Below are positions 40,000 through 56,600 of a stretch of DNA of 62,121 nucleotides, piece after piece. The DNA comes from a bacterium. GTDB lineage: Bacteria > Bacteroidota > Bacteroidia > NS11-12g > UBA955. The position numbers were made by a program, and so were the translations under genes. The notes under the pieces are model-generated. The model saw nothing but the letters and a program-made list of their open reading frames with translations. It searched no databases and was not told the origin of the DNA. Each line of letters begins with the position of its first letter. Position 1 is the first letter of the stretch. Location of the stretch: assembly GCA_029945665.1 (NCBI GenBank), contig JAQSCZ010000001.1, positions 1 to 62,121 of the forward strand, in the 5' to 3' direction.

Positions 40000-41097
40000 T
40001 TATTTATACTGAATTAGTGGCTGTAGCTTTCCAAGTTCTTTAAGTCGAATAATATGCGAATACAACGCCGCGCCAAAACTAGATTTTAAATTATACGGCA
40101 TACCAAAATCTTTGGCAGTTTTTTCTACAATTGGTGCAATTTCAGGATAGTGTATATGGCAAATATTGGCAAATAAATGGTGCTCAATTTGAAAATTCAA
40201 ACCGCCCACATACCACCCAATTAATTTATTATTTCTTGCAAAATCGGAAGTAGTATGCAATTGATGAACTAACCAATCTGATTGAATAGAATGACCTGGG
40301 ATTGGCTGTTCGGCACCTTCTACCACATGTGCCATTTGAAAAACAAAGCTTAAAATTATACTAGCGACCCAATGCATGATAAAAAATCCGATTAATACTT
40401 GCAATAGACTATAAGTGGTTAACCAAAGTGGCAAACCGAGTATAATTGTTAAATAAATAATTTTACGAAAAACCATCTTGGTATATTCACTTGAAATATC
40501 CTTATTTTGTCCCTTCACTAACCCATTTTTATTATAATTAAACAATCTTGAAAAATCATTGATTAGCATGGTCAATGTCATCAATCCATAAAAAAAGAAG
40601 GCATAAATAAATTGAAATTTGTGAAACCATTTTAATGGTTTATTCTCCGATAAACGGATAGGACCCTTTGAATCAATATCCTCGTCCAAACCAGAAATAT
40701 TGGTATAAGTATGGTGCAAAACATTGTGCTGAATTTTCCAGTTCAATATGTTACTTCCCAGCAAATACAATGTACCAGACAGTACTTTATTTACCCATTG
40801 TCTTTTTGAATAAGCGCCATGACAGGCATCGTGCATAACGCCCATGCCAACACCTGCAACTCCTATGCCCATTATCACGGTCAATATTGCCGCAACATAT
40901 AGTGGCATCGACACTGTTAAAAGTAAAATATAGGGAACGAGATATAGGGAAAGCATTACAAAAGTTTTTATAACCATTGCCGCATTGGCCTTTGTTGAAA
41001 TATGATTAGTTTTAAAATAATCATTTACATTTTTTCTGAGTGTTTGAACAAACAATTTTTCTTGGTGATCGTGTGGGATAAATTTAACAATATTCAT
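40000..41097 (-). CDS. Membrane fatty-acid desaturase (acyl-CoA/front-end type)
   Basis: A 365-residue integral membrane di-iron enzyme. All three histidine boxes are present: HDACH at residues 89-93, HNVLHH at 124-129 and QIEHH at 303-307. The QxxHH third box is that of delta-6/linoleoyl-CoA-like front-end desaturases. Four transmembrane helices are visible (about 45-65, 68-88, 165-185, 215-250). No cytochrome b5 domain is fused. It is embedded between kynA (10 bp) and kmo (30 bp) with no lipid genes nearby; what links it to its neighbours is use of O2. Confidence 0.92.
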   Translation of the reverse strand: MNIVKFIPHDHQEKLFVQTLRKNVNDYFKTNHISTKANAAMVIKTFVMLSLYLVPYILLLTVSMPLYVAAILTVIMGIGVAGVGMGVMHDACHGAYSKRQWVNKVLSGTLYLLGSNILNWKIQHNVLHHTYTNISGLDEDIDSKGPIRLSENKPLKWFHKFQFIYAFFFYGLMTLTMLINDFSRLFNYNKNGLVKGQNKDISSEYTKMVFRKIIYLTIILGLPLWLTTYSLLQVLIGFFIMHWVASIILSFVFQMAHVVEGAEQPIPGHSIQSDWLVHQLHTTSDFARNNKLIGWYVGGLNFQIEHHLFANICHIHYPEIAPIVEKTAKDFGMPYNLKSSFGAALYSHIIRLKELGKLQPLIQYK

Positions 41098-41127
41098 GTA
41101 GGGAAATTCTTAAGAGATTAGGTTTTT

Positions 41128-42489
41128 TTAATTGGGGATTTTGGTACTACCATCAAAAAGATGGTGAATTAATTTATCAATTTGTGACAGTGGTGTTTCC
41201 TGAGTAATTTCATTTGCTTTAATAAAATCTGCTATGATTTCGTTCTGCTCATTTCCTTTCTCTAATGCTACTTTGTATTCCATATCACTAAAGGAAACCA
41301 TGCTGTAAAGCGGGAAATATTTATTAGGAAATAATTCACTAATTCTGCGTTCTACTTTTTGCTGTAATTGATAATTGGCATCACTTACTTTATCGCGCAT
41401 TACTAAATAGTTTTGCAAAGACAAATCTTGCACTGCATCACCATTTGGTTTCCTAGATATTTCATACGCTTTGAAAACTTCAGACCAATTTTCATTATGC
41501 GCTTTCATCAATGAAAAAAGCACTGAGCAATCTTCGAAGCCGCAATTCATACCTTGACCAAAGAATGGAACCGTAGCATGGGCTGCATCGCCCATTAACG
41601 CCAATTTTCCATGGGTCCAAGGAAAACAGCGAATGATTGCCAACGAAGACAAAGGATGTGAATTCCAACTATCTGCCACTTCTGGCATTAAATGATAAAA
41701 ATCCGGAAATACCATTCTGAAAAAACTGTCTACATCCGACTTAGTTTTTAAATCATTAAAACAAAAATCATGTCCTTCAAAAGGCATAAATAAAGTACAA
41801 GTAAATGACCCATCAAAATTTGGTAAAGCAATCAACATAAAACGACCCCGAGGCCAAATGTGCAAAGTTTCCTTCTCCAATTTATAGGATCCATCCGCAT
41901 TTGCTGGCAATAAAATTTCTCTATAACCATCGGGAATATAATTTTGAGAATAACTAAACCTATCCAGTTTTTGCATAGCACTGTATCGAGCTGCAGAAAA
42001 AGCACCATCCGTTGCAAATACAACATCGGACTTATACTCGGACAATTCACCCGTTTGTGTATGACGCAAATAAGTGACACCATTGTCAAAATCAACATTC
42101 ACACATTCTTGGTTGAAATTTATTTTCGTATTTAATTTCTCTTCCGCAATATCCATTAACTTGGCATTTATTTCGCCACGGGAAACTGAATAAATAGCTT
42201 GACCACTTGAACCATAAGGCTGATAAGCCAAAGTATTGTCTAAATTATGAATGGTACGACCATGCATAGGAATCGCAATTTTCCTGATTTCATCACCTAT
42301 ACCTACTTCATCCAAGGCTTTCCAACCGCGATAAGAAGTTGCAAGATTTATCGACTTACCTGCCGATATTTTTGTAAGTCGCATGTCTGAACGCTTTTCA
42401 AAAACCTCAACTTGATATCCTGCTTTTGCAAGATATATGGCCCATAATGAGCCAACCAAACCCGACCCAATAATTGTCGCTTGTTTCAT
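41128..42489 (-). CDS. kmo: Kynurenine 3-monooxygenase
   Basis: A 453-residue flavin monooxygenase. The FAD-binding GSGLVGSLWAIYLAKAGYQVEVFEKR at residues 7-32, SINLATSYRGWKALDEVG, and ALMGDAAHATVPFFGQGMNCGFED (about 300-323) are all characteristic of KMO. It hydroxylates kynurenine to 3-hydroxykynurenine with NADPH and O2. Its start lies 1 bp after the stop of the 3-hydroxyanthranilate dioxygenase gene, so the two are probably coupled. Its product needs kynureninase to reach that dioxygenase, and no kynureninase is in the window. Confidence 0.94.
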   Translation of the reverse strand: MKQATIIGSGLVGSLWAIYLAKAGYQVEVFEKRSDMRLTKISAGKSINLATSYRGWKALDEVGIGDEIRKIAIPMHGRTIHNLDNTLAYQPYGSSGQAIYSVSRGEINAKLMDIAEEKLNTKINFNQECVNVDFDNGVTYLRHTQTGELSEYKSDVVFATDGAFSAARYSAMQKLDRFSYSQNYIPDGYREILLPANADGSYKLEKETLHIWPRGRFMLIALPNFDGSFTCTLFMPFEGHDFCFNDLKTKSDVDSFFRMVFPDFYHLMPEVADSWNSHPLSSLAIIRCFPWTHGKLALMGDAAHATVPFFGQGMNCGFEDCSVLFSLMKAHNENWSEVFKAYEISRKPNGDAVQDLSLQNYLVMRDKVSDANYQLQQKVERRISELFPNKYFPLYSMVSFSDMEYKVALEKGNEQNEIIADFIKANEITQETPLSQIDKLIHHLFDGSTKIPN

Positions 42490-42490
42490 T

Positions 42491-43024
42491 TTATTTTGCT
42501 TCTGTTTTTAGTTCAGGTATCTCCATTACATGACCGCATTCTTTGCAAGTCCTTAAATCCACATCGTCATAAAACCCCTGCATCAAAATGGGTAATTGAC
42601 CAACAATATCATTACAATGAAAGGTGGCTCTATACAACTCGGTATCGCAGCTTTCACAATACCAAGTGCAGGCATCCAACTCCTCTTTTTGCCTTTCTCT
42701 TTCTATGACTACACCAACTGTATTCGGAAAACGCTGTGGTGAATGCTCTACTCTTGGAGGCAATAAAAACAATTCCCCCTCTTTAATAGTAATCACTCTA
42801 GTTTTACCAGCTTCGCGAATGGGCAATTCCATATCGCCTTCTAATTGATAAAACAACTCCTCGCATTCGTTATAGTGAAATTCCTTTCTAGCATTTGGAC
42901 CACCAACCACCATTACCATAAAATCGCTGTCTTTATACACCACTTGATTTCCAACTGGTGGCTTTAATAAATGGCGATTATCATTGATCCATTTTGTAAG
43001 ATTGATAGGATTTGAAACTTTCAT
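42491..43024 (-). CDS. nbaC: 3-hydroxyanthranilate 3,4-dioxygenase
   Basis: A 177-residue cupin dioxygenase. Metal ligands His50, Glu56 and His94 are present (EFHYNECEELFYQL and PPRVEHSPQRF), and the C-terminal rubredoxin-like site with CESC (about 139-142) and CKEC is the bacterial form. It opens the ring of 3-hydroxyanthranilate; the product cyclises to quinolinate unless a decarboxylase acts. With no decarboxylase here it could serve NAD synthesis as well as tryptophan breakdown. It lies 9 bp after hppD. Confidence 0.94.
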   Translation of the reverse strand: MKVSNPINLTKWINDNRHLLKPPVGNQVVYKDSDFMVMVVGGPNARKEFHYNECEELFYQLEGDMELPIREAGKTRVITIKEGELFLLPPRVEHSPQRFPNTVGVVIERERQKEELDACTWYCESCDTELYRATFHCNDIVGQLPILMQGFYDDVDLRTCKECGHVMEIPELKTEAK

Positions 43025-43033
43025 AAATAATAT

Positions 43034-44194
43034 TTATAATGTGCCTCTTCTAGCCTGTTCTGCCTCAATAGATTCAAACAAGGCTTGAAAATTTCCTTTG
43101 CCAAAAGAACGCGCTCCTTTTCTTTGAATGATTTCAAAAAACAAGGTTGGACGGTCTTCGACAGGTTTCGTAAATATTTGCAACAAGTAGCCTTCTTCAT
43201 CCCTGTCTACCATAATGCCCCACTTTTTTAATTCATTTAAATCCTCTTCTATCATTCCTACCCTTTCAGCAACATTGTCATAATAGGTACCAGGAACATA
43301 TAAGAACTCAACCCCTCTTTTGCGCATTTCAGAAATTGTAAACACAATATCATCGGTAGCAACCGCAATATGTTGACAACCCGGACCTCTATAAAAATCG
43401 AGATACTCTTCTACTTGCGACTTCTTTTTACCTATTGCTGGCTCATTGATTGGAAACTTAACGTATCCATTGCCGTTGGTCATTACTTTGCTCATCAAAG
43501 CCGTATATTCTGTAGAAATATCTTTGTCATCGAATGTCACAATATTGGCAAAACCCATCACATCAGCATAAAAATTCGACCATTTATTCATACTGCCCAT
43601 TTCAACATTTCCCACCATGTGATCAATGTATTTCAAACCTGTTGAAATTGGATGATATTCTGTTTTTAAAGCCACATAACCAGGTAAAAAAATTCCTTTA
43701 TAATTTTTTCTTTCAATAAAAATATGCACTGTGTCGCCATAGGTGCGAATGCCAGCGCGCTTAATTGACCCATATTGGTCTTCAATAGTCTCGGGCAATA
43801 GGTAATTCTCAGCACCTCTCGTTATGGTTTGATGGTAGGCATCATAAGCATCATCTACCCATAAAGCAATTACTTTTACACCATCGCCATGTTTTACCAA
43901 ATGCTTTGAAATATCGCTATCAGGATCAAGCGGTGTTGTTAATACCAATCGAATTTTACCTTGTTGTAAAACATACGATGTGCGATCCTTAATGCCCGTT
44001 TCTAAACCAGCATAAGCCAAGTCTTGGAAGCCTAAGGCTGTTTTATAATAATGGGCAGCTTGCTTGGCATTTCCAACATAAAGTTCTATATAATCTGTTC
44101 CGTTTATAGGTAAAAAATCTTTGGCATCTGCGAATATTTTTTGAGTTTCAGAATATTGAAAATTCTTTACATTGGTTAAATCTTCTGTTATCAT
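43034..44194 (-). CDS. hppD: 4-hydroxyphenylpyruvate dioxygenase
   Basis: A 386-residue enzyme with two VOC domains. The Fe(II) ligands fall in YIDHMVGNVEMG, PGCQHIAVATDDI and LFFEIIQRKGARSFGKGNF, the last being the HPPD C-terminal signature. It converts 4-hydroxyphenylpyruvate, O2 to homogentisate and CO2. It lies 12 bp after hmgA and 9 bp before nbaC, so tyrosine and tryptophan genes interleave. Length and motifs fit the bacterial/plant-type enzyme. Confidence 0.95.
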   Translation of the reverse strand: MITEDLTNVKNFQYSETQKIFADAKDFLPINGTDYIELYVGNAKQAAHYYKTALGFQDLAYAGLETGIKDRTSYVLQQGKIRLVLTTPLDPDSDISKHLVKHGDGVKVIALWVDDAYDAYHQTITRGAENYLLPETIEDQYGSIKRAGIRTYGDTVHIFIERKNYKGIFLPGYVALKTEYHPISTGLKYIDHMVGNVEMGSMNKWSNFYADVMGFANIVTFDDKDISTEYTALMSKVMTNGNGYVKFPINEPAIGKKKSQVEEYLDFYRGPGCQHIAVATDDIVFTISEMRKRGVEFLYVPGTYYDNVAERVGMIEEDLNELKKWGIMVDRDEEGYLLQIFTKPVEDRPTLFFEIIQRKGARSFGKGNFQALFESIEAEQARRGTL

Positions 44195-44206
44195 TTTAAT
44201 TATATT

Positions 44207-45373
44207 TTATTTGTTTTCGTATTGCCAAGATTGGTAATACGCTTTTATTTCGATTGCGAGGGCTTCCTTGGTTATTTGTACAGGATTGAACGGATCAATC
44301 ATCACAGCCAATTCATTGGTTGCTTTTTTTCCAATACTTCTTTCAATGGCGCCAGGATGTGGTCCATGTGCCAAACCACCCGTATGTAAAGTAATCTGAC
44401 CTGGTTGAATATCATTTCGACTCATAAAATCACCATCCACATAATACAACAATTCATCGCTATCAATATTACTATGGTGATAGGGTGCTGGAATGGCATC
44501 AAGATGATAATCGTACATACGAGGTACAAAAGAACAGATGACAAAATTATTCGCTTGAAATTGTTGATGAATCGGAGGTGGCATGTGTACCCTACCCGTG
44601 ATGGGCTCGAAATCGTGAATCGATATGGCATAAGGATAGGAACAACCATCATAGCCTATAACATCGAAGGGATGGGTGGCATAAACATACGGATATATTA
44701 AGCCACGTTTTTTTATCTGAATCAGAAATTCGCCCTTCTCATCATGGGTTTCCAAATCAGTCGGAAATTTCATATCCCTTTCGCAGAAAGGCGCATGTTC
44801 CAAAAACTGTCCGTATTGATTTCTATATCTTGCGGGCGTTTCAATCGGACTAAAAGACTCCACAAACAATAATTTATTATCGGCTGTATCAAAACTAATT
44901 TGATAAATTGTACCTCTAGGTATAATGATATAATCACCGTACTTGAAATCAATTTTACCATACATCGTTTTTAACACCCCCGAGCCTTTATGAACGAATA
45001 ACATTTCGTCTGCATCCGCATTTTTAAAAAAATAAGTTTCTACACTTTTGGTTGGCGAAGCAATGCCAATATGTAAATCGTTATTAACGAAGAGCACTTT
45101 GCGACTTTTAATATAATCTGCTTCGGGTGCTACATTAAAACCGAGGTAACTTCTATTTTGCAAATTATCTTCAAATGCTATTTCAGGACGAACACTAATT
45201 GGTTGTCCCATTTCCTTCACAATGGTTGGAGGATATAGATGGTAAACCAACGAGGAAACACCTGCAAAACCTTCGGTTCCAAATAACTCCTCGTGATACA
45301 ATTGGCCATTTGGTTGTCTAAAAACGGTATGGCGCTTGTGTGGTATTTTTCCTACTTGACGATAAAGTGGCAT
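44207..45373 (-). CDS. hmgA: Homogentisate 1,2-dioxygenase
   Basis: A 388-residue cupin-fold enzyme, shorter than the roughly 430-440-residue pseudomonad and human proteins. Active-site segments are clear: MPPPIHQQFQANNFVICSFVPR, YHHSNIDSDELLYYVDGDF (Fe-binding His and Glu) and HTGGLAHGPHPGAIE. It cleaves homogentisate with O2 to maleylacetoacetate; isomerase and fumarylacetoacetase genes are absent from the window. It starts 23 bp after the MBL-rhodanese gene. Confidence 0.94.
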   Translation of the reverse strand: MPLYRQVGKIPHKRHTVFRQPNGQLYHEELFGTEGFAGVSSLVYHLYPPTIVKEMGQPISVRPEIAFEDNLQNRSYLGFNVAPEADYIKSRKVLFVNNDLHIGIASPTKSVETYFFKNADADEMLFVHKGSGVLKTMYGKIDFKYGDYIIIPRGTIYQISFDTADNKLLFVESFSPIETPARYRNQYGQFLEHAPFCERDMKFPTDLETHDEKGEFLIQIKKRGLIYPYVYATHPFDVIGYDGCSYPYAISIHDFEPITGRVHMPPPIHQQFQANNFVICSFVPRMYDYHLDAIPAPYHHSNIDSDELLYYVDGDFMSRNDIQPGQITLHTGGLAHGPHPGAIERSIGKKATNELAVMIDPFNPVQITKEALAIEIKAYYQSWQYENK

Positions 45374-45396
45374 ATATATTTAAACTATTAAATTGA

Positions 45397-46809
45397 TTAC
45401 AAAAGGGTTGTTGGACAGATGTATGCGGACTTTGGTATTCCTGTTTTAGAAAGCTCGGCAAATCCACCTCTTATTTCTGTAAAATTATTCCACCCTCTTT
45501 GTTTCAAAATCGAAGCAGCTATCATACTTCTGTAACCACCTGCACAGTGCAAATAGAAATGCTCGTTTTTGGGAATTTCAGCCAAATAATTATTGATTTG
45601 ATTGAGTGGCATATTGATAGCACCTATAAGGTGTTCAGATGCAAATTCACTTTTTTTCCTAACATCAATCACGCGTGGTTTTTCATTGTACTTAAGCGCT
45701 AATAATTCTGCTGCCGCTCTATCAATCGTTTCAATGTTTTTGTTTGCCAACAACCACGATTCAAAACCACCTTTCAGATAACCAATGACACCATCGTATC
45801 CAACGCGCGACAGGCGTGTAACAGCCTCTTCAACTTTATCTGGGTAGGTTATCAATAGTATTTTCTGATTAATATCACTAATCATTTCGCCAACCCATTG
45901 GGCAAAACTACCTTCCAAACCTATGTTAATGCTATTGGGAATAAATCCATTTTTAAAATCTTCTGCATTTCTGGTATCCAATACCAATGCTCCAGTTTCA
46001 TTGGCAATGGCTTCGAATTCATCAACTTCAAAGGCGTGCATAGCATTATCAATAACCTTATCAAAACTTTCATACCCCTTAATATTTAACAACACATTAC
46101 TTGGAAAATAAGCTGGAGGTGCAGTTAAACCAGTTAATAAAACTTTAATGAATTCTGCTTTACTCAAGGCAGGATTTAGCGCATAGTTAACCACCTTTTG
46201 ATGGCCTAATGTATCGGTAGTTTCTATGCTCATGTTTTTACCACAAGCACTACCAGCACCATGATTGGGATAAACGATCAAATGATCTGATAAAGGAATT
46301 ATTTTGTTATGAAGAGAATCGTAGAGCATACCAGCCAATTTCTCTTCCGTTAATTCTGCAATAACATGTTGAGCTAGGTCGGGCCTACCAACATCTCCAA
46401 TAAACAAAGTATCACCGGTAATAATACCATGTTCTTTGCCTGTTTCATCAATGAGTAAATAAGTTGTACTTTCGAGCGTGTGCCCAGGTGTGTGAATGGC
46501 TTTTACAAGACAATTACCAACTCTAAATATTTGATTATCCTCTGCCACCAAGGCCTCAAAACCAGGTTTAGCAGTTGGACCATAAACAATGGCCGCTCCA
46601 GTTTTTTTTGCTAAATCAAGATGACCACTCACAAAATCGGCATGAAAGTGGGTTTCAAAAACATATTTTATATGCGCTTTATTGATATTTGCTTTATCAA
46701 TATAGGGTTGAACCTCGCGCAGTGGATCAAATATTGCGACTTCGCCCTCACTTTCAAGATAGTAGGCAGCATGGGCTAAACAACCGGTGTAAATTTGTTC
46801 AATTTTCAT
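45397..46809 (-). CDS. MBL-fold/double-rhodanese protein (persulfide-dioxygenase-like)
   Basis: A 470-residue three-domain protein. Residues 1-240 are a metallo-beta-lactamase fold with HFHAD at 54-58 and HTPGHT, the single-iron layout of ETHE1/PDO sulfur dioxygenases. Residues about 255-350 are a rhodanese domain whose active-loop Cys is missing (ITYPDK), and about 365-460 a second with an intact loop HCAGGYRS. It probably oxidises persulfide with O2 and passes sulfane sulfur. First gene of the operon, 23 bp before hmgA. A promoter and FNR-like site lie upstream. Confidence 0.88.
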   Translation of the reverse strand: MKIEQIYTGCLAHAAYYLESEGEVAIFDPLREVQPYIDKANINKAHIKYVFETHFHADFVSGHLDLAKKTGAAIVYGPTAKPGFEALVAEDNQIFRVGNCLVKAIHTPGHTLESTTYLLIDETGKEHGIITGDTLFIGDVGRPDLAQHVIAELTEEKLAGMLYDSLHNKIIPLSDHLIVYPNHGAGSACGKNMSIETTDTLGHQKVVNYALNPALSKAEFIKVLLTGLTAPPAYFPSNVLLNIKGYESFDKVIDNAMHAFEVDEFEAIANETGALVLDTRNAEDFKNGFIPNSINIGLEGSFAQWVGEMISDINQKILLITYPDKVEEAVTRLSRVGYDGVIGYLKGGFESWLLANKNIETIDRAAAELLALKYNEKPRVIDVRKKSEFASEHLIGAINMPLNQINNYLAEIPKNEHFYLHCAGGYRSMIAASILKQRGWNNFTEIRGGFAELSKTGIPKSAYICPTTLL

Positions 46810-46877
46810 ATTTTAAAACTTTTAAAAGCCATATTTTTACTTAATATATATAAAGACCTTTTTATCTTTTTATTGCA

Positions 46878-46908
46878 CAAAACTAAATACAATAGCATAT
46901 AGTTGCAA
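46878..46908 (-). promoter_or_regulatory. Promoter of the ten-gene oxygenase operon
   Basis: On the minus strand, TTG (46908-46906, in CCTTGC) and TAGTTTTG (46885-46878) are separated by exactly 20 bp, the normal Bacteroidota -33/-7 spacing. Transcription should begin near 46872, giving a leader of about 62 nt before the ATG at 46809. Confidence 0.65.
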
Positions 46909-46912
46909 GGGC

Positions 46913-46928
46913 TATGATAAAAATCATA
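46913..46928. promoter_or_regulatory. FNR/CRP-like palindromic operator
   Basis: TATGATAAAAATCATA has perfect 6-bp arms around a 4-bp centre. Its core TGAT-N4-ATCA equals the core of the FNR consensus. It abuts the -33 box of the oxygenase operon (centre about 48 bp before the expected start), the usual place for an activator. It also lies about 90 bp upstream of the divergent PspC gene. Confidence 0.55.
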
Positions 46929-47006
46929 AGGCGAATAGTTGAACCTGAAAAAAGTAAGACATGCAACAAAAGGTTAAACATATTTCATTGAATGAAAAAT
47001 TTATGT

Positions 47007-47014
47007 TAAATTTG
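47007..47014 (+). promoter_or_regulatory. -7 box for the PspC gene (leaderless)
   Basis: TAAATTTG matches TAnnTTTG and ends 4 nt before the ATG at 47019. Confidence 0.5.
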
Positions 47015-47018
47015 CAAT

Positions 47019-47237
47019 ATGCCCTTATTTAAAAACATTATAGAAACCCAGGCATTTGGTGTTTGCAGTAAGTTAGGCGAAAAAATGGGTTTAAGTACAA
47101 AAAGAATTCGTTTATTCTTTTTATATACCAGTTTTCTAACCCTTGGATCACCAATTATTATTTATATGGTGATGGCATTTTGGATGAATATGCGAAAATA
47201 CGCTCGCGAAAAGCGCACAGCAGTTTGGGATTTGTAA
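47019..47237 (+). CDS. PspC-domain membrane protein
   Basis: A 72-residue protein consisting of a PspC domain: FGVCSKLGEKMGLSTKRIRLFFLYTSFL followed by a second hydrophobic stretch (TLGSPIIIYMVMAFWM), giving one or two membrane helices. PspC proteins sense envelope stress in phage-shock responses; small stand-alone copies are common in Bacteroidota and often uncharacterised. Its stop directly abuts the stop of the convergent lipoprotein gene. Confidence 0.85.
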   Translation: MPLFKNIIETQAFGVCSKLGEKMGLSTKRIRLFFLYTSFLTLGSPIIIYMVMAFWMNMRKYAREKRTAVWDL

Positions 47238-47660
47238 TTAGTCCTTCAAATGCAGTTCAACATCTTTACCATTGATGGCTTGCACCACCCAAGTTTCAGT
47301 TTCCTTTAATCGCAATATTTTCCATTTGCTGACATTATTTGAACCCGATTGCGGTGTAAAATTAATGGTTGATTTATCACCACTAAAATCCCAAGTACCT
47401 GTTTCTTTATAGTCAAATACATTGAAGGGCCGATATTTGATTTCATAAGATTTATCTTTTTTAATAGCAATTTGATAATTGAAATAGGCATTTTTATAAT
47501 CATCTGTTTTATTTGTACCTTCTTCAAATGCTTGATCGAGATACCAAGTATTGATTGCCCTGTGGGCTTTGCTTCTTAAACTAAACTTTGGACCATCCTC
47601 ATATTTGCAAGCAGTGAAGCAGATAATAAGTATAAATAAACCACCAATATATTTGATCAT
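47238..47660 (-). CDS. Lipocalin-like lipoprotein
   Basis: About 140 residues from MIKYIGGLF (47660). The longer start at 47678 is rejected because a -7 box (TAAATTTG, minus strand 47673-47666) lies between the two ATGs. The lipobox FTAC puts the lipid Cys at about residue 18. The mature part resembles small lipocalin-like Bacteroidota lipoproteins (AINTWYLDQAFEEGTNKT, ETGTWDFSGDKSTINF, WKILRLKETETWVVQ). Function unknown. Confidence 0.8.
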   Translation of the reverse strand: MIKYIGGLFILIICFTACKYEDGPKFSLRSKAHRAINTWYLDQAFEEGTNKTDDYKNAYFNYQIAIKKDKSYEIKYRPFNVFDYKETGTWDFSGDKSTINFTPQSGSNNVSKWKILRLKETETWVVQAINGKDVELHLKD

Positions 47661-47665
47661 AAAAA

Positions 47666-47673
47666 CAAATTTA
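47666..47673 (-). promoter_or_regulatory. -7 box for the lipocalin-like lipoprotein
   Basis: The minus strand reads TAAATTTG, ending 5 nt before the ATG at 47660; the mRNA would be leaderless. Confidence 0.5.
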
Positions 47674-47678
47674 GTCAA

Positions 47679-48266
47679 AAAACAATACTATTTTAGAGAA
47701 GTGTTAGATTTTGAGCTCTAAAAAAAAGGCTTTAAAAAAAAGTGTACAGGAGATATCGCAATTCTGCAAACCGATTTTTGACAAATGAGTAAGGTTGTAA
47801 GTCAAATTTTATTAAGATTTAGACTACAAATCCAAATGATTGGAAGTACATAGGATTTAACAAAAATCAAGAATTTCCTTTAAGCCAATTAGTTTAATTC
47901 ATATAAATAGGTAGCCATAATAGATGCTGTAAATTCAACATAAAATACAAATTTTATAAATTCCATTATGCATTCATTTACCATTTTTGCAGATTTAGAT
48001 TTCAATTCTCAATTTGAGAAAAAATGCAGGAACGAAACGAGCAAAAGAGAGTGTGCATAACCTTCTAAAAATTGATTATCAAATTGTTACGTTGATTTTC
48101 TGGAACGGTTTTGGTCGTGGCACGAATAGTGAAATACAATGCATAGGAGTTCAAATGTAAGTTAGACATAATCTGATACATATTCTTTCAAAATATACAA
48201 ATAAATAAAATCGGGGCCCTCTTTAAAAAATCAAGTTGACAAGCAGATACCGCGCTATAAAACACC
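47679..48266. other. Gene-poor intergenic region
   Basis: No convincing gene. The best frames are 30 codons from the ATG at about 47968 and a 48-codon open stretch without a start ending near 48160. Neither resembles anything known to me. The stretch separates the lipocalin-like gene from the kinase operon and could be a decayed gene. Confidence 0.4.
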
Positions 48267-48305
48267 AACACATGGGGGTTTCATATTTTTTGGACCCCCT
48301 GTGTT
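48267..48305. promoter_or_regulatory. Large GC-rich inverted repeat at the kinase promoter
   Basis: AACACATGGGGGT (48267-48279) pairs with ACCCCCTGTGTT (48294-48305): 12 bp with one bulged T, loop 14 nt. It ends where the -33 contact of the kinase promoter should lie. It could be an operator, or a terminator for anything reading in from the left, as a T-rich stretch follows. Confidence 0.5.
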
Positions 48306-48325
48306 ATGATATGACTTTTTAAAAT

Positions 48326-48333
48326 TACTTTTG
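48326..48333 (+). promoter_or_regulatory. -7 box for the hybrid kinase gene
   Basis: TACTTTTG matches TAnnTTTG and ends 14 nt before the ATG at 48348. Confidence 0.5.
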
Positions 48334-48347
48334 ATAAACTTTAAAGA

Positions 48348-50816
48348 ATGCGACCAAAAACAAATCAAAATTTTTTATATGGTATTTGGGTCTACGTCCT
48401 TTTATCACTTGCTATATTATCTATAGTAAATTTAGGTTTGTTTAGTTACAATAAAATTTCAGATGCTTTAAACAACTTAAAAAGTAGAATTAATGAGAAT
48501 ATAGAACTAACGTCGATTAAGAACATAAGATTAGACTACATTAAAATGGATAACATGATGGAGATGTATTTAATTACAAACAAAATGTTCTATCTCAATC
48601 AATTTGATACTTTAGCAACAAAAACCAAACGTACAATCGCGCAACTCAATCAGTCGAAAATAATTAATCCCTATGAATCTGCCTTATTGGATTCTCTTAA
48701 AACTTCAATTAACTATAAAATCGAAAACCTCGATTATATTATCCTTTATGAGCAAAATAAATCAATTGAAAACTCTATCAACGATTTATTAGAAAGAAAT
48801 AGCAATAGTTATTTAGAAACGCCTTCTGTTAGTATCATTCCAAAAAAAGAAAAAGTACCAAGAAAGAGTTTTGCCGATCGCATTGGGCTTAAGCGGAAGC
48901 AAAAATATAAAACGGATTCGTTGGAAACGAACCAAGCTAGAAATATACCATTAGATGCCAATGGCGATGCAATTGCACGAAAACAAGACTTATTCGACCT
49001 CCGTCAATCGTCTGATATTAATCCTAACCTTGAGAACGACAAGGAATTAAATGAATATTTTATGGATTTGTGTCGCGTTATTGAAACTATTGAGATCAAT
49101 AGAATAGACCAAGAACGCATTGTATCTGAGAAGAAAATCAAACAGGCGAATCAATCGATTCTAATGCTCGGGGTAAGCACTACCCTTTTCCTAATCCTAG
49201 CTGCAATTGTATATTTTATCTATATTAAGCGTCTTACAGAAGTTCGAAAAAATCTCGCAGACTCAAAAGATGTTGCCGAGGAAATGACCCTCTTGAAAGA
49301 GCGTTTCATGGCCAATATGAGTCATGAAATTAGAACACCAATGAATGCCATTTCTGGATTTGTCGATCAGCTTCAAGTCTCCGAATTAAATGTTATTCAA
49401 AAACGACAAATAGGTATTATTCAAAAATCCATAACCCATGTGCTGAATATCATTAATGATATTCTGGATTTTTCTAAATTAAATGCACGTAAGTTAACCC
49501 TTGATTTTAAAGGTATGAAAATCCACAACGTGATTTATCAAACCATAGAAATTGTTCAGCCACTTTTGGCAGAAAAACACTTGACATTAACCTGCGAAAT
49601 TGACCCAAAAATGCCTCCCATATTAATTGGAGACACTTATAGATTGCGACAAATTTTACTAAATATAATAGGCAACGCCATTAAATATACGCATGAAGGC
49701 GGTATAGATATTCGAGTAACCGTTTTACCCGAAGAGCACAATGTTTTCTTGGTTAAAATTATAGTAAAGGATAGTGGTATTGGTATAGCTCAGAACGAAC
49801 TCGCCCAAATATTTAAGGAGTACCACATGGCCGATAATTCTAATTTCAGCAAAGCTGGAAGCTCGGGACTAGGTTTGAATATTACCAAAATGCTTGTTGA
49901 GTTATACAATGGACAAATTAGCGTAGATAGCGTTCTTAATAAAGGCACCAGTGTAACTATCTATATACCTTTTAGAGGCGGAAATACTTTGGACTTAGCG
50001 CAGGAAAATAGATTTATGAGCAATCGTCAATTTCTGAATGGAAAAAAAATATTGATAGCTGACGATGAACCATTTAACAGGGTATTGCTCAATAATATTT
50101 TAGAAAAACACAATGTCATTACTTCAGAGGCAGTCAATGGCGAAGAAGTCTTATTAAAGGTAGAGAGTGAACATTTTGATTGCATTTTAATGGATTTAAA
50201 AATGCCTGAGTTAAACGGATTAGAAGCTAGTCAAAAAATACGTAATTCCTCTGATACAAGTGTTAGGAACATTCCTATCATTGCACTTTCTGCAGCCATC
50301 ACTTCCGAAAATATCCATTTTTTAAACAGCATTGATGTAACAGCATTTCTTGAGAAACCTTTTAAAGAAATCGAATTACTTAACATGCTCTTTAGCGTTT
50401 TAGATAATGGCATCATAGAAACAGAAACTCAAACAGAGATTACAGGTACAGTATCCGATAAATCAACACAAAATTTTGACCTCGGCGATTTACAAAAACA
50501 GGCCGGATCTGATGTGCATTTTTTGAATGATATGCTAAATACACTAATCAATTCAACAAAAAAAGGAATTGATGAAATAGAAGAGGCGATAACCCACGGA
50601 GATTATGATTTAATTAATCTTACTGCTCACCGCATCGCTTCGCCACTTAAGTATATTTACGCCACGGAGTTGTATGATATTATCAAACAAATTGAAAATT
50701 ATACTGAACCTAATGTTGGTAAAAATCCGGACATAATCAGGCTTCATTTTAACCGGTTCAGAGGTGAATTTAATACCCTCACCAACTTAATTCAAGAATA
50801 CATGAAAAATACTTAG
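48348..50816 (+). CDS. Hybrid sensor histidine kinase with receiver and Hpt domains
   Basis: An 822-residue protein. Transmembrane helices at about residues 10-33 and 270-293 enclose a roughly 235-residue extracytoplasmic helical sensor. HisKA follows with the phospho-His at 326 (FMANMSHEIRTPMNA), then HATPase (IIGNAIKYTHEGG, KDSGIGIAQNE, SSGLGLNITKML). A receiver has ILIADDEP and CILMDLKMPELNG (phospho-Asp), with Lys in EKPF. The C-terminal 100 residues form an Hpt-like domain with His in TAHRIASPLKYI. It can therefore run an internal His-Asp-His phosphorelay. The sigma-54 regulator gene follows after 37 bp and is the probable target. The stimulus is unknown. Confidence 0.93.
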   Translation: MRPKTNQNFLYGIWVYVLLSLAILSIVNLGLFSYNKISDALNNLKSRINENIELTSIKNIRLDYIKMDNMMEMYLITNKMFYLNQFDTLATKTKRTIAQLNQSKIINPYESALLDSLKTSINYKIENLDYIILYEQNKSIENSINDLLERNSNSYLETPSVSIIPKKEKVPRKSFADRIGLKRKQKYKTDSLETNQARNIPLDANGDAIARKQDLFDLRQSSDINPNLENDKELNEYFMDLCRVIETIEINRIDQERIVSEKKIKQANQSILMLGVSTTLFLILAAIVYFIYIKRLTEVRKNLADSKDVAEEMTLLKERFMANMSHEIRTPMNAISGFVDQLQVSELNVIQKRQIGIIQKSITHVLNIINDILDFSKLNARKLTLDFKGMKIHNVIYQTIEIVQPLLAEKHLTLTCEIDPKMPPILIGDTYRLRQILLNIIGNAIKYTHEGGIDIRVTVLPEEHNVFLVKIIVKDSGIGIAQNELAQIFKEYHMADNSNFSKAGSSGLGLNITKMLVELYNGQISVDSVLNKGTSVTIYIPFRGGNTLDLAQENRFMSNRQFLNGKKILIADDEPFNRVLLNNILEKHNVITSEAVNGEEVLLKVESEHFDCILMDLKMPELNGLEASQKIRNSSDTSVRNIPIIALSAAITSENIHFLNSIDVTAFLEKPFKEIELLNMLFSVLDNGIIETETQTEITGTVSDKSTQNFDLGDLQKQAGSDVHFLNDMLNTLINSTKKGIDEIEEAITHGDYDLINLTAHRIASPLKYIYATELYDIIKQIENYTEPNVGKNPDIIRLHFNRFRGEFNTLTNLIQEYMKNT

Positions 50817-55509: not shown

Positions 55510-56190
55510 TTATTTAGAAAAGAGATTTCTAACCAATCCTATTTCGATTAGATGGCGATAGGTTTTGGTATTGGCTCCCACATTTTTCAACTCATTAGTC
55601 AAACCACAATAGAAAGCATATTGAGGCATAATCCACCAATCTTTCTTAATTGCTATGCGGTAGGCAAGTCGACCCGATAAGCCCATTCCGAACTTGTTAA
55701 GCATGTTTCTTGAACTGTTGTCAATGCGTGTGTTCACATCAGGTTTATCGGCACTAAAAACCGTATTTTTATAGCCCTTCATTTGAGCATTTAATAAGAA
55801 ATTAGTTTCTACTCCGAGACTAAAAGTCAAATGGTTATCCTTAATTTTAAAATTGAAGGGATAAATACCTAATCCCAGAATTGACTTATTAATTTCAATA
55901 CCAGTTGTAGTTATCTCTTCAGGCTTGCGCGCAGTTGTATAAACATACCCGTTATAGGAAGATGACCTTAGGGTAAACAAAAAGGAGTGATTGGCTATTT
56001 TTACATTGTCTAATCCTATGCCAAAATTCGACCCTTTAAGACCTGAATAAAAAGTGCTAAAATTGGCATTGTCCTTTTTGTAATCAAAGAAACGGTTGTT
56101 ATTTAATCCACCAAATAACATGAGGCTCTGACCAGTTAATCCAACCACATTGCCCAACATAATAATTAACACCAATAACCTTACTTTCAT
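55510..56190 (-). CDS. Outer-membrane barrel protein of unknown function
   Basis: A 226-residue precursor with signal peptide ending near VGLTGQ. The mature part has barrel-like strands (MLFGGLNNNRFFDYKKD, WWIMPQYAFYCGLTNELKN) and ends LVRNLFSK. A -7 box TAATTTTG is seen on the minus strand at 56229-56222, giving a leader of about 26 nt. No family is recognised and no partner gene is adjacent. Confidence 0.75.
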   Translation of the reverse strand: MKVRLLVLIIMLGNVVGLTGQSLMLFGGLNNNRFFDYKKDNANFSTFYSGLKGSNFGIGLDNVKIANHSFLFTLRSSSYNGYVYTTARKPEEITTTGIEINKSILGLGIYPFNFKIKDNHLTFSLGVETNFLLNAQMKGYKNTVFSADKPDVNTRIDNSSRNMLNKFGMGLSGRLAYRIAIKKDWWIMPQYAFYCGLTNELKNVGANTKTYRHLIEIGLVRNLFSK

Positions 56191-56600
56191 CGTCTTTGTT
56201 TTACTTTTAATACCATTTAGACAAAATTATTGTATCTACTTCTGAATTATGACACAAATAATACAATTCTTTTTAAATGATCGCTGCGAAATTATGATTT
56301 GCAAGATGTTGAAAGGATGACGATCATCAGTAAAATACATAATCGATGTCATATAAATCATTTAGTTGCGGCTTTTAAATCTATTGCAAATCCTTACTAT
56401 CACTTGGTAAATCAGAAAAAATAACAAAACAAACTACCATATTTTCAATGTCATTAATTGGTCATATTATTTAAAAAGGCGCATGCACGTTGCGATTTTC
56501 TTTTTTACGAGAAATCACACCCCTAATACCCTAAAATTCTGACAACTATTTTTTAGTAAAGCGTCTATTGCATTGCTTGACCACTCTGTGAAAGAGAAAC
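56191..56600. other. Intergenic region, no gene seen
   Basis: It holds the promoter of the barrel gene (-7 box at 56222-56229). I found no convincing ORF, RNA gene or repeat in the rest. Confidence 0.5.

What the first reader, a model, noticed from the sequence alone, without database searches (positions are those of the whole stretch)
46878..46928. FNR/CRP-like site abutting a well-spaced promoter of the oxygenase operon
The promoter boxes TTG and TAGTTTTG are 20 bp apart, and immediately upstream lies TATGATAAAAATCATA, whose core TGAT-N4-ATCA matches the core of the FNR consensus. The placement is that of an activator site. Together with the all-O2-using operon this suggests oxygen- or redox-responsive control by a Crp/Fnr-family regulator encoded elsewhere.
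Basis: partly seen in the sequence, partly recalled or inferred. Interest (0 to 1): 0.62.

Follow-up and report, generated by a model that had tools for sequence, protein, structure and literature searches.

The report
Displaced low-oxygen switch site upstream of oxygenases
A short DNA palindrome in front of a set of oxygen-using enzyme genes looks like a kept but shifted docking site for a bacterial oxygen-type regulator, and its relatives point to a little-described low-oxygen control circuit in this group of bacteria.

Summary
By sequence alone they are not above chance. By comparison the palindrome is real: its eight core bases are 94% identical in four congeners, other intergenic columns 42%. 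TGAY-N4-RTCA also stands before 12 of 20 relatives' HGD-HPD operons that are not led by this sulfur gene, 8 of them centred at -41.5 of a TAnnYTTG box (class II Crp/Fnr position). In 59 related genomes this architecture occurs 181 times, the reversed pattern 5 times. In congeners it precedes cytochromes, stress proteins and, in five genomes, cbb3 oxidase; sites cluster near a gene for a fused receiver-Crp regulator. Own genome: such a regulator with a FixL/DosP-like PAS kinase lies on another contig. So oxygen/redox control by a Crp/Fnr protein encoded elsewhere is plausible.

Binding and oxygen response are untested.

The parts
46913..46928 (.). Palindrome TATGAT-N4-ATCATA; TGAY-N4-RTCA operator candidate, centre at -47.5 of TAGTTTTG
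   Evidence: core 94% identical in 4 congeners
46906..46908 (-). TTG, possible -33 element
   Evidence: three bases, not testable alone
46878..46885 (-). TAGTTTTG, consensus -7 box; TAGTTTTT in 4 congeners
46884..46895 (-). Place of a second, degenerate palindrome in congeners (TGATTCTCATTA in L012); CTATTGTATTTA here
   Evidence: alignment, read by eye
46850..46871 (-).
   Evidence: core 96% identical in 4 congeners
45397..46809 (-). MBL-fold plus rhodanese domains, first gene; persulfide dioxygenase/sulfurtransferase type (inferred)
   Evidence: best PDB hits 3tp9, 3r2u; weaker 4ysb, 4chl persulfide dioxygenase
44207..45373 (-). Homogentisate 1,2-dioxygenase-like
   Evidence: (50 bits, cut-off 511)
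43034..44194 (-). 4-hydroxyphenylpyruvate dioxygenase
   Evidence: above curated cut-off
42491..43024 (-). 3-hydroxyanthranilate 3,4-dioxygenase
   Evidence: above curated cut-off
41128..42489 (-). Kynurenine 3-monooxygenase
   Evidence: 6lkd, E 5e-94
40000..41097 (-). Fatty acid desaturase
47019..47237 (+). PspC-domain protein, divergent
   Evidence: 24.9 bits, cut-off 25
47007..47014 (+). TAAATTTG, likely -7 box of the PspC gene

Best explanation
The palindrome is an operator for a Crp/Fnr-family protein, kept from the ancestral promoter of the tyrosine-degradation (HGD-HPD) operon. In relatives whose HGD-HPD operon is not led by the MBL gene, the same TGAY-N4-RTCA motif is often centred at -41.5 of a TAnnYTTG promoter, where a bound dimer would act as a class II activator (the sequence pattern is shown; binding and activation are inferred). 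The likely protein is a fused receiver-Crp regulator served by a FixL/DosP-like PAS histidine kinase (own genome C67:15095-17384), so that low oxygen would drive binding through phosphorylation (inferred). In the window's lineage a sulfur-type MBL-rhodanese gene heads the operon and the palindrome lies at -47.5 from the only consensus box. It is probably still bound, but works from an altered promoter or only modulates it, perhaps with an unidentified protein on the 46850-46871 dyad. The direction of regulation here is unknown.
For: Core 94% conserved in 4 congeners against 42% background; TGAY-N4-RTCA in 6 of 8 MBL-led HGD operons scanned. In HGD-led operons 12 of 20 have it, 7 have two, 8 at offset 29; shuffled rates 1.5%, 0.02%, 0. 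The full architecture occurs 181 times in 59 genomes against 5 reversed. Micro-oxic gene set; cbb3 operon in 5 of 15 cco loci. 17 of 129 listed sites within 10 kb of a receiver-Crp gene, 1.18 expected; 3.59 sites per genome with full receiver-Crp, 1.25 without. PAS best PDB hits FixL 2e-16, DosP 4e-15.
Against: Offset 35 instead of 29; box not conserved; L013 has lost the core. On the matrix of class II sites the window site is in the lowest 7%, and the window holds no more hits than shuffles (2 against 2.8). The own genome has only 2 perfect class II matches (reversed 0), and with one mismatch 21 against 15 for the control. G061, G072 and G078 have the receiver-Crp and no site; 16 genomes without it still have 20 sites, and 6 with only a Crp domain have 28. 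Counts include close relatives, so the statistics overstate independence.
Confidence: 0.45

Rival explanations
1. The palindrome is a relic without present function. The operon is run by an unknown DNA-binding protein on the dyad at 46850-46871, which overlaps the predicted start of transcription.
For: The dyad core is 96% identical in 4 congeners. Scores of 20 or more of 22 occur in 5 of 109 MBL upstreams, all leading HGD operons or, in L029, a contig end before it. The palindrome is off the 29 rule and lost in L013.
Against: The palindrome core is the best conserved 12-mer outside the box/dyad block. L015 and L016, from another family, have TGAY-N4-RTCA at other places of the same promoter region. 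Other AAAGAY-N6-RTCTTT sites of the genome lie inside genes. L014 and L016 reach only 19 of 22, a score also seen in unrelated upstreams.
Confidence: 0.27
2. The site is bound by the sulfur-linked Crp (C23:37684-38304 type), which usually stands before MBL-rhodanese genes, so the signal is sulfide or persulfide, not oxygen.
For: The first gene is of that family. 75% of 97 non-redundant MBL upstreams carry TGTRAC-N4-GTYACA (score 10 or more; shuffled 1.1%, reversed 3.1%; matrix trained on the same set). This Crp type lies beside MBL in 39 of 110 loci.
Against: The window site scores 6.0 on that matrix, the own genome's two sites in the Crp's cluster 15.2 and 14.6, both at offset 29. The outer TG is missing on both arms and the offset is 35. 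The same core without that outer TG precedes HGD-led operons that have no MBL gene.
Confidence: 0.15
3. The site belongs to the divergent PspC gene.
For: It lies in the shared intergenic region, and PspC is the neighbour in all 5 congeneric loci L011, L012, L013, L014, L029.
Against: The centre is about 86 bp from the PspC box, far from -41.5. In relatives the motif goes with the HGD operon; upstreams of PspC elsewhere were not examined.
Confidence: 0.05

Closest known systems
FixL-FixJ-FixK cascade of rhizobia (haem-PAS kinase, response regulator, Crp/Fnr-type activator; features recalled)
   Same: PAS kinase most like FixL, Crp/Fnr-type regulator, cbb3 oxidase genes among the targets in congeners
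   Different: Receiver and Crp are one protein, no separate LuxR-type FixJ; promoters are TAnnYTTG; haem not tested
FNR box TTGAT-N4-ATCAA and class II FNR/CRP promoters at -41.5 (recalled)
   Same: TGAT-N4-ATCA core; -41.5 placement in relatives
   Different: Outer T is A here; -47.5 in the window; no own Crp/Fnr protein with four cysteines
Sulfur-linked Crp motif TGTRAC-N4-GTYACA before MBL-rhodanese genes (found here; no paper found)
   Same: Same offset of 29 and same gene family as the operon's first gene
   Different: Different half-site; the window site scores 6.0 against 14.6-15.2

Membership tests
FNR-type binding site (TTGAT-N4-ATCAA) | TGAT-N4-ATCA core | tested here: met
FNR-type binding site (TTGAT-N4-ATCAA) | outer T/A of each arm | tested here: not met
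   A/T on both arms in the window; C/T or C/A in congeners
FNR-type binding site (TTGAT-N4-ATCAA) | an FNR with four cluster cysteines in the genome | tested here: not met
   1 to 3 cysteines in the six Crp/Fnr proteins over the Pfam cut-off; rule recalled
Class II Crp/Fnr activator site | centre at -41.5 of the promoter | tested here: not met
   window offset 35 = -47.5; relatives 8 of 20 HGD-led at -41.5. Transcription start not mapped here.
Class II Crp/Fnr activator site | binding and activation | not testable with these tools
   needs footprint and expression
FixL-FixJ-FixK type circuit (the proposed regulator) | haem-PAS kinase | tested here: inconclusive
   FixL/DosP best PDB hits, proximal His aligned; the FixL distal Arg is not kept (alignment, role recalled); haem not testable
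FixL-FixJ-FixK type circuit (the proposed regulator) | separate FixJ with LuxR-type output | tested here: not met
   receiver fused to Crp; a separate FixJ was not searched for
FixL-FixJ-FixK type circuit (the proposed regulator) | target sites before cbb3 oxidase | tested here: inconclusive
   met in 5 of 15 cco loci; in the 7 loci of the window's clade other same-strand ORFs precede cco, so the operon promoter lies outside most of the 1.3 kb scanned
Sulfur-linked Crp motif | TGTRAC-N4-GTYACA at offset 29 | tested here: not met

The most novel reading that the evidence does not exclude
Bacteroidota of this order use a one-protein FixJ-FixK (receiver fused to Crp) with a haem-PAS kinase as a low-oxygen switch. 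It binds TGAY-N4-RTCA at -41.5 of TAnnYTTG promoters, up to 18 matches per genome, and governs enzymes that consume oxygen (tyrosine dioxygenases, TrhO) besides cbb3 oxidase, so that oxygen-requiring catabolism is raised, not shut down, when oxygen is scarce. The window shows one such promoter being rearranged after a sulfur gene came to head the operon.
Probability: 0.4. Interest if true: 0.66.

Novelty: new variant of a known kind. Interest (0 to 1): 0.45.

Why it matters
I found no paper on a low-oxygen switch of this kind in Bacteroidota. A defined operator, a fixed spacing rule and a candidate kinase-regulator pair make one testable at once. The window shows such an operator in a rearranged promoter, where a sulfur gene whose family usually has its own Crp motif heads an aromatic amino acid operon.

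Tried and rejected
Rejected or set aside: the FNR core as evidence by itself (chance level); the sulfur-type Crp as binder (matrix score and spacing); the Crp of C115 (L006, with an FNR-like recognition helix by eye) as the general regulator, found in 8 of 59 genomes at E 1e-30; a 5' RNA hairpin on the dyad (z -0.01); Rfam, no match in 40000-50000 at gathering scores. Of six AAAGAY-N6-RTCTTT sites in the genome (reversed 4) the five others lie inside genes, so no regulon of the dyad was found. The upstream of the own MBL paralogue (C31) shows no palindrome (by eye). The window-clade cco loci were at first read as lacking the site; one search shows the operon promoter lies farther upstream, so that test is inconclusive.

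Literature: ten searches (three of them found no paper). In the capped listings no title or abstract start describes a receiver-Crp of Bacteroidota, the -41.5 rule or the sulfur Crp motif. Of PMC9723704 and PMC8510549 I saw passages; of the rest only listings.

Not done: structure prediction, expression data, a tree of the Crp paralogues, a search with the C12 Crp (L002).

Rows dropped before counts: 10 of 30 HGD loci (7 MBL-led in the window's clade, 2 led by another MBL, 1 cut by the contig end); 2 of 110 MBL upstreams under 150 bases, then 11 near-identical ones (108 to 97). The dyad scan stopped with an error at L037, so it covered L011-L036 only; one search repeated it on 109. 7 of the 60 gave no ORF within 160 bp and 3 overlap a longer ORF. 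In one search, 30 of the 110 loci have about 1.5 kb of flank only, so a neighbouring Crp can be missed there. The control sum of 5 was added by hand; 181 was repeated.

Full report
What is there. The minus-strand promoter region of the six-gene run 46809-40000 holds TATGATTTTTATCATA at 46913-46928, TTG at 46908-46906 and TAGTTTTG at 46885-46878. The run begins with an MBL-fold protein with rhodanese domains, followed by a distant homogentisate dioxygenase-like protein, 4-hydroxyphenylpyruvate dioxygenase, 3-hydroxyanthranilate dioxygenase, kynurenine monooxygenase and a desaturase. That it is one operon is inferred from spacing and strand. A PspC-domain gene diverges at 47019. The genome is 3.79 Mb in 126 contigs, a Bacteroidota by inference from the record titles of its relatives and the promoter type.

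Is it more than chance? By sequence no. The core occurs 4 times in the window against 2.16 expected, its relaxed form 214 times in the genome against 187 for the reversed pattern. The 16-mer has one other copy, inside a gene. A matrix of class II sites finds 2 hits as good in the window against 2.8 in shuffles. By conservation yes. L012, L013, L014 and L029 are congeneric loci with the same MBL gene and the same PspC neighbour, HGD following in three and the contig ending in L029. Their TGAT/ATCA cells are 94% identical to the window, other columns 42%. L012 and L014 keep ATCA, L029 has GTCA, and L013 has AACA and so has lost the core.

What the motif does elsewhere, first family. Upstream of MBL-rhodanese orthologues across Bacteroidota stands TGTRAC-N4-GTYACA: 75% of 97 non-redundant upstreams score 10 or more, against 1.1% shuffled and 3.1% reversed; the matrix was trained on the same set. 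Its core is at offset 29 from a TAnnYTTG box in 29 of 97, no other offset exceeding 3. A Crp of the C23 type lies beside the gene in 39 of 110 loci, and that type is found in 42 of 59 related genomes. In the own genome this Crp's neighbourhood carries TGTAACAATGGTTGCA and TGTAACAAATGTAACT, both at offset 29; the box of the first, CAAATTTG, departs from TAnnTTTG at one base. By neighbourhood this is a sulfur-linked Crp system.

Second family. Where the HGD-HPD operon is not led by MBL, TGAY-N4-RTCA stands before it in 12 of 20 loci, two copies in 7, and at offset 29 in 8. Per shuffled sequence the rates are 1.5%, 0.02% and 0; in the reversed sequences 1 of 20 has the motif. All 12 are among the 13 loci from the window's family; none of the 7 from the other family has it. 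Some of these loci are close relatives of each other, so the counts are not independent. Of 8 MBL-led HGD loci scanned, 6 have the motif.

The -41.5 rule. Offset 29 as I count it puts the centre 29.5 bp before the first T of the box. In F. psychrophilum the box lies at -12 to -5 (PMC9723704, passages), which gives -41.5, the class II position (class names recalled). The window's offset is 35, giving -47.5; in the histograms the only 35 is one MBL upstream, and one search shows the window's own (L011).

The regulon. TGAY-N4-RTCA-N23-TAnnYTTG occurs 181 times in 59 related genomes against 5 for the reversed pattern. This pattern also takes in sulfur-type sites with TGAC. In the own genome it occurs twice (reversed 0), before an SDR-family gene at C3 and a PSCyt1 cytochrome gene at C15; with one mismatch it occurs 21 times against 15 in the control, so single one-mismatch sites there are weak. 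Of 60 sites read, genes downstream include cytochrome c proteins, TrhO, a 2-oxoacid:acceptor oxidoreductase, an SQR-like oxidoreductase, aldehyde dehydrogenase, Usp, Hsp20, a DnaJ-type protein, fasciclin and a 226-aa protein (names are my reading of the sequence except cytochrome, aldehyde dehydrogenase, the oxidoreductase fold and TrhO, which matched family models, TrhO and SQR from partial sequences below curated cut-offs). In G010 the site precedes ccoN/O, ccoP, ccoG, ccoH, a PAS kinase and a receiver-Crp gene in one run (cco names are my reading). Palindromes with the exact offset precede cco in G004, G009, G010, G012 and G015, 5 of 15 cco loci. In the seven loci of the window's clade none was found, but other same-strand ORFs precede cco there, so the operon promoter was not covered.

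The regulator. The own genome encodes six Crp/Fnr proteins above the Pfam cut-off. One, C67:15095-16153, has a receiver domain fused to a Crp and follows a PAS histidine kinase whose PAS hits FixL at 2e-16 and DosP at 4e-15 with the proximal histidine aligned (the residue's role is recalled). Its recognition helix GTATETVIR keeps the E and R that in FNR read the TGA (recalled). Of 30 receiver-Crp loci my expression caught 21 helices, 18 of them GTATET[VL]IR. The full protein is in 37 of 59 genomes, a Crp domain alone in 6. Genomes with the full protein have 3.59 sites on average, those with the Crp domain alone 4.67, those without 1.25 (full against none p 0.003; per Mb p 0.03). 17 of 129 listed sites lie within 10 kb of its gene, 1.18 expected. 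Congeners count repeatedly in these tests. Against it, G061, G072 and G078 have the protein and no site, and the 16 genomes without it still hold 20 sites.

The window's promoter. In six of seven MBL-led loci (L012-L016, L029) a TAnnTTTG box ends 8-20 bp before the ATG; the window alone lacks it and has TAGTTTTG 68 bp before the ATG, which reads TAGTTTTT in the four congeners. In L012 to L014 and L029 TAGTTTTT is the tail of a degenerate second palindrome (TGATTCTCATTA in L012), resembling the site-plus-T-run before HGD in some relatives (by eye). The best conserved block is another one: the dyad at 46850-46871, consensus ATAAAGAY-N6-RTCTTTAT, core 96% identical in the four congeners. Scores of 20 or more of 22 occur in 5 of 109 MBL upstreams (L011, L012, L013, L015, L029); L014 and L016 have the same block but score 19, as L048, an unrelated upstream, does. 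Its protein is unknown, and an RNA hairpin there is no better than in shuffles.

Judgement. I hold it most likely (0.45) that the site is still bound by the receiver-Crp, with unknown effect; a relic beside the dyad (0.27) and a sulfur Crp (0.15) remain.

Literature. Ten searches of open papers gave no title or abstract start that describes a receiver-Crp of Bacteroidota or this spacing rule. PMC8510549 (passages) predicts Crp/Fnr homologues of Flavobacteriales and Saprospiraceae to be MalR-like carbon sensors. PMC9723704 (passages) reports cbb3 induction under oxygen limitation in F. psychrophilum; the words Crp and Fnr do not occur in its main text.

Noticed in passing
window 56287-56329 (-), before 55510-56190: TGATGATCGTCA with TAATTTCG at offset 29 (one mismatch in the box) before a 226-aa protein without Pfam match; the orthologous promoters of G005, G006, G011 and G014 have perfect class II sites.
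   Followed up: partly
L122 11541-12690 and MBL upstreams L011-L120: A sulfur-linked Crp motif TGTRAC-N4-GTYACA at -41.5 before MBL-rhodanese genes across Bacteroidota, with the Crp gene often beside it; no paper found.
   Followed up: partly
window 44207-45373 and G000:C69:10759-11910: The HGD-like protein is far below the hmgA cut-off (50 of 511 bits) and a second one, 62% identical, is in this genome and in many relatives; one of the two may have another role.
   Followed up: no
L126 (G000:C15:29745-32762): By eye, a truncated haemoglobin, a tryptophan 2,3-dioxygenase and a RIC/ScdA-like iron-sulfur repair protein lie together.
   Followed up: no
L182 14575-14943 and 17438-17857 (-): Two small related proteins of 122 and 139 aa without Pfam match flank the receiver-Crp/kinase pair; relatives of them in G004 and G015 have perfect class II sites just upstream.
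   Followed up: partly
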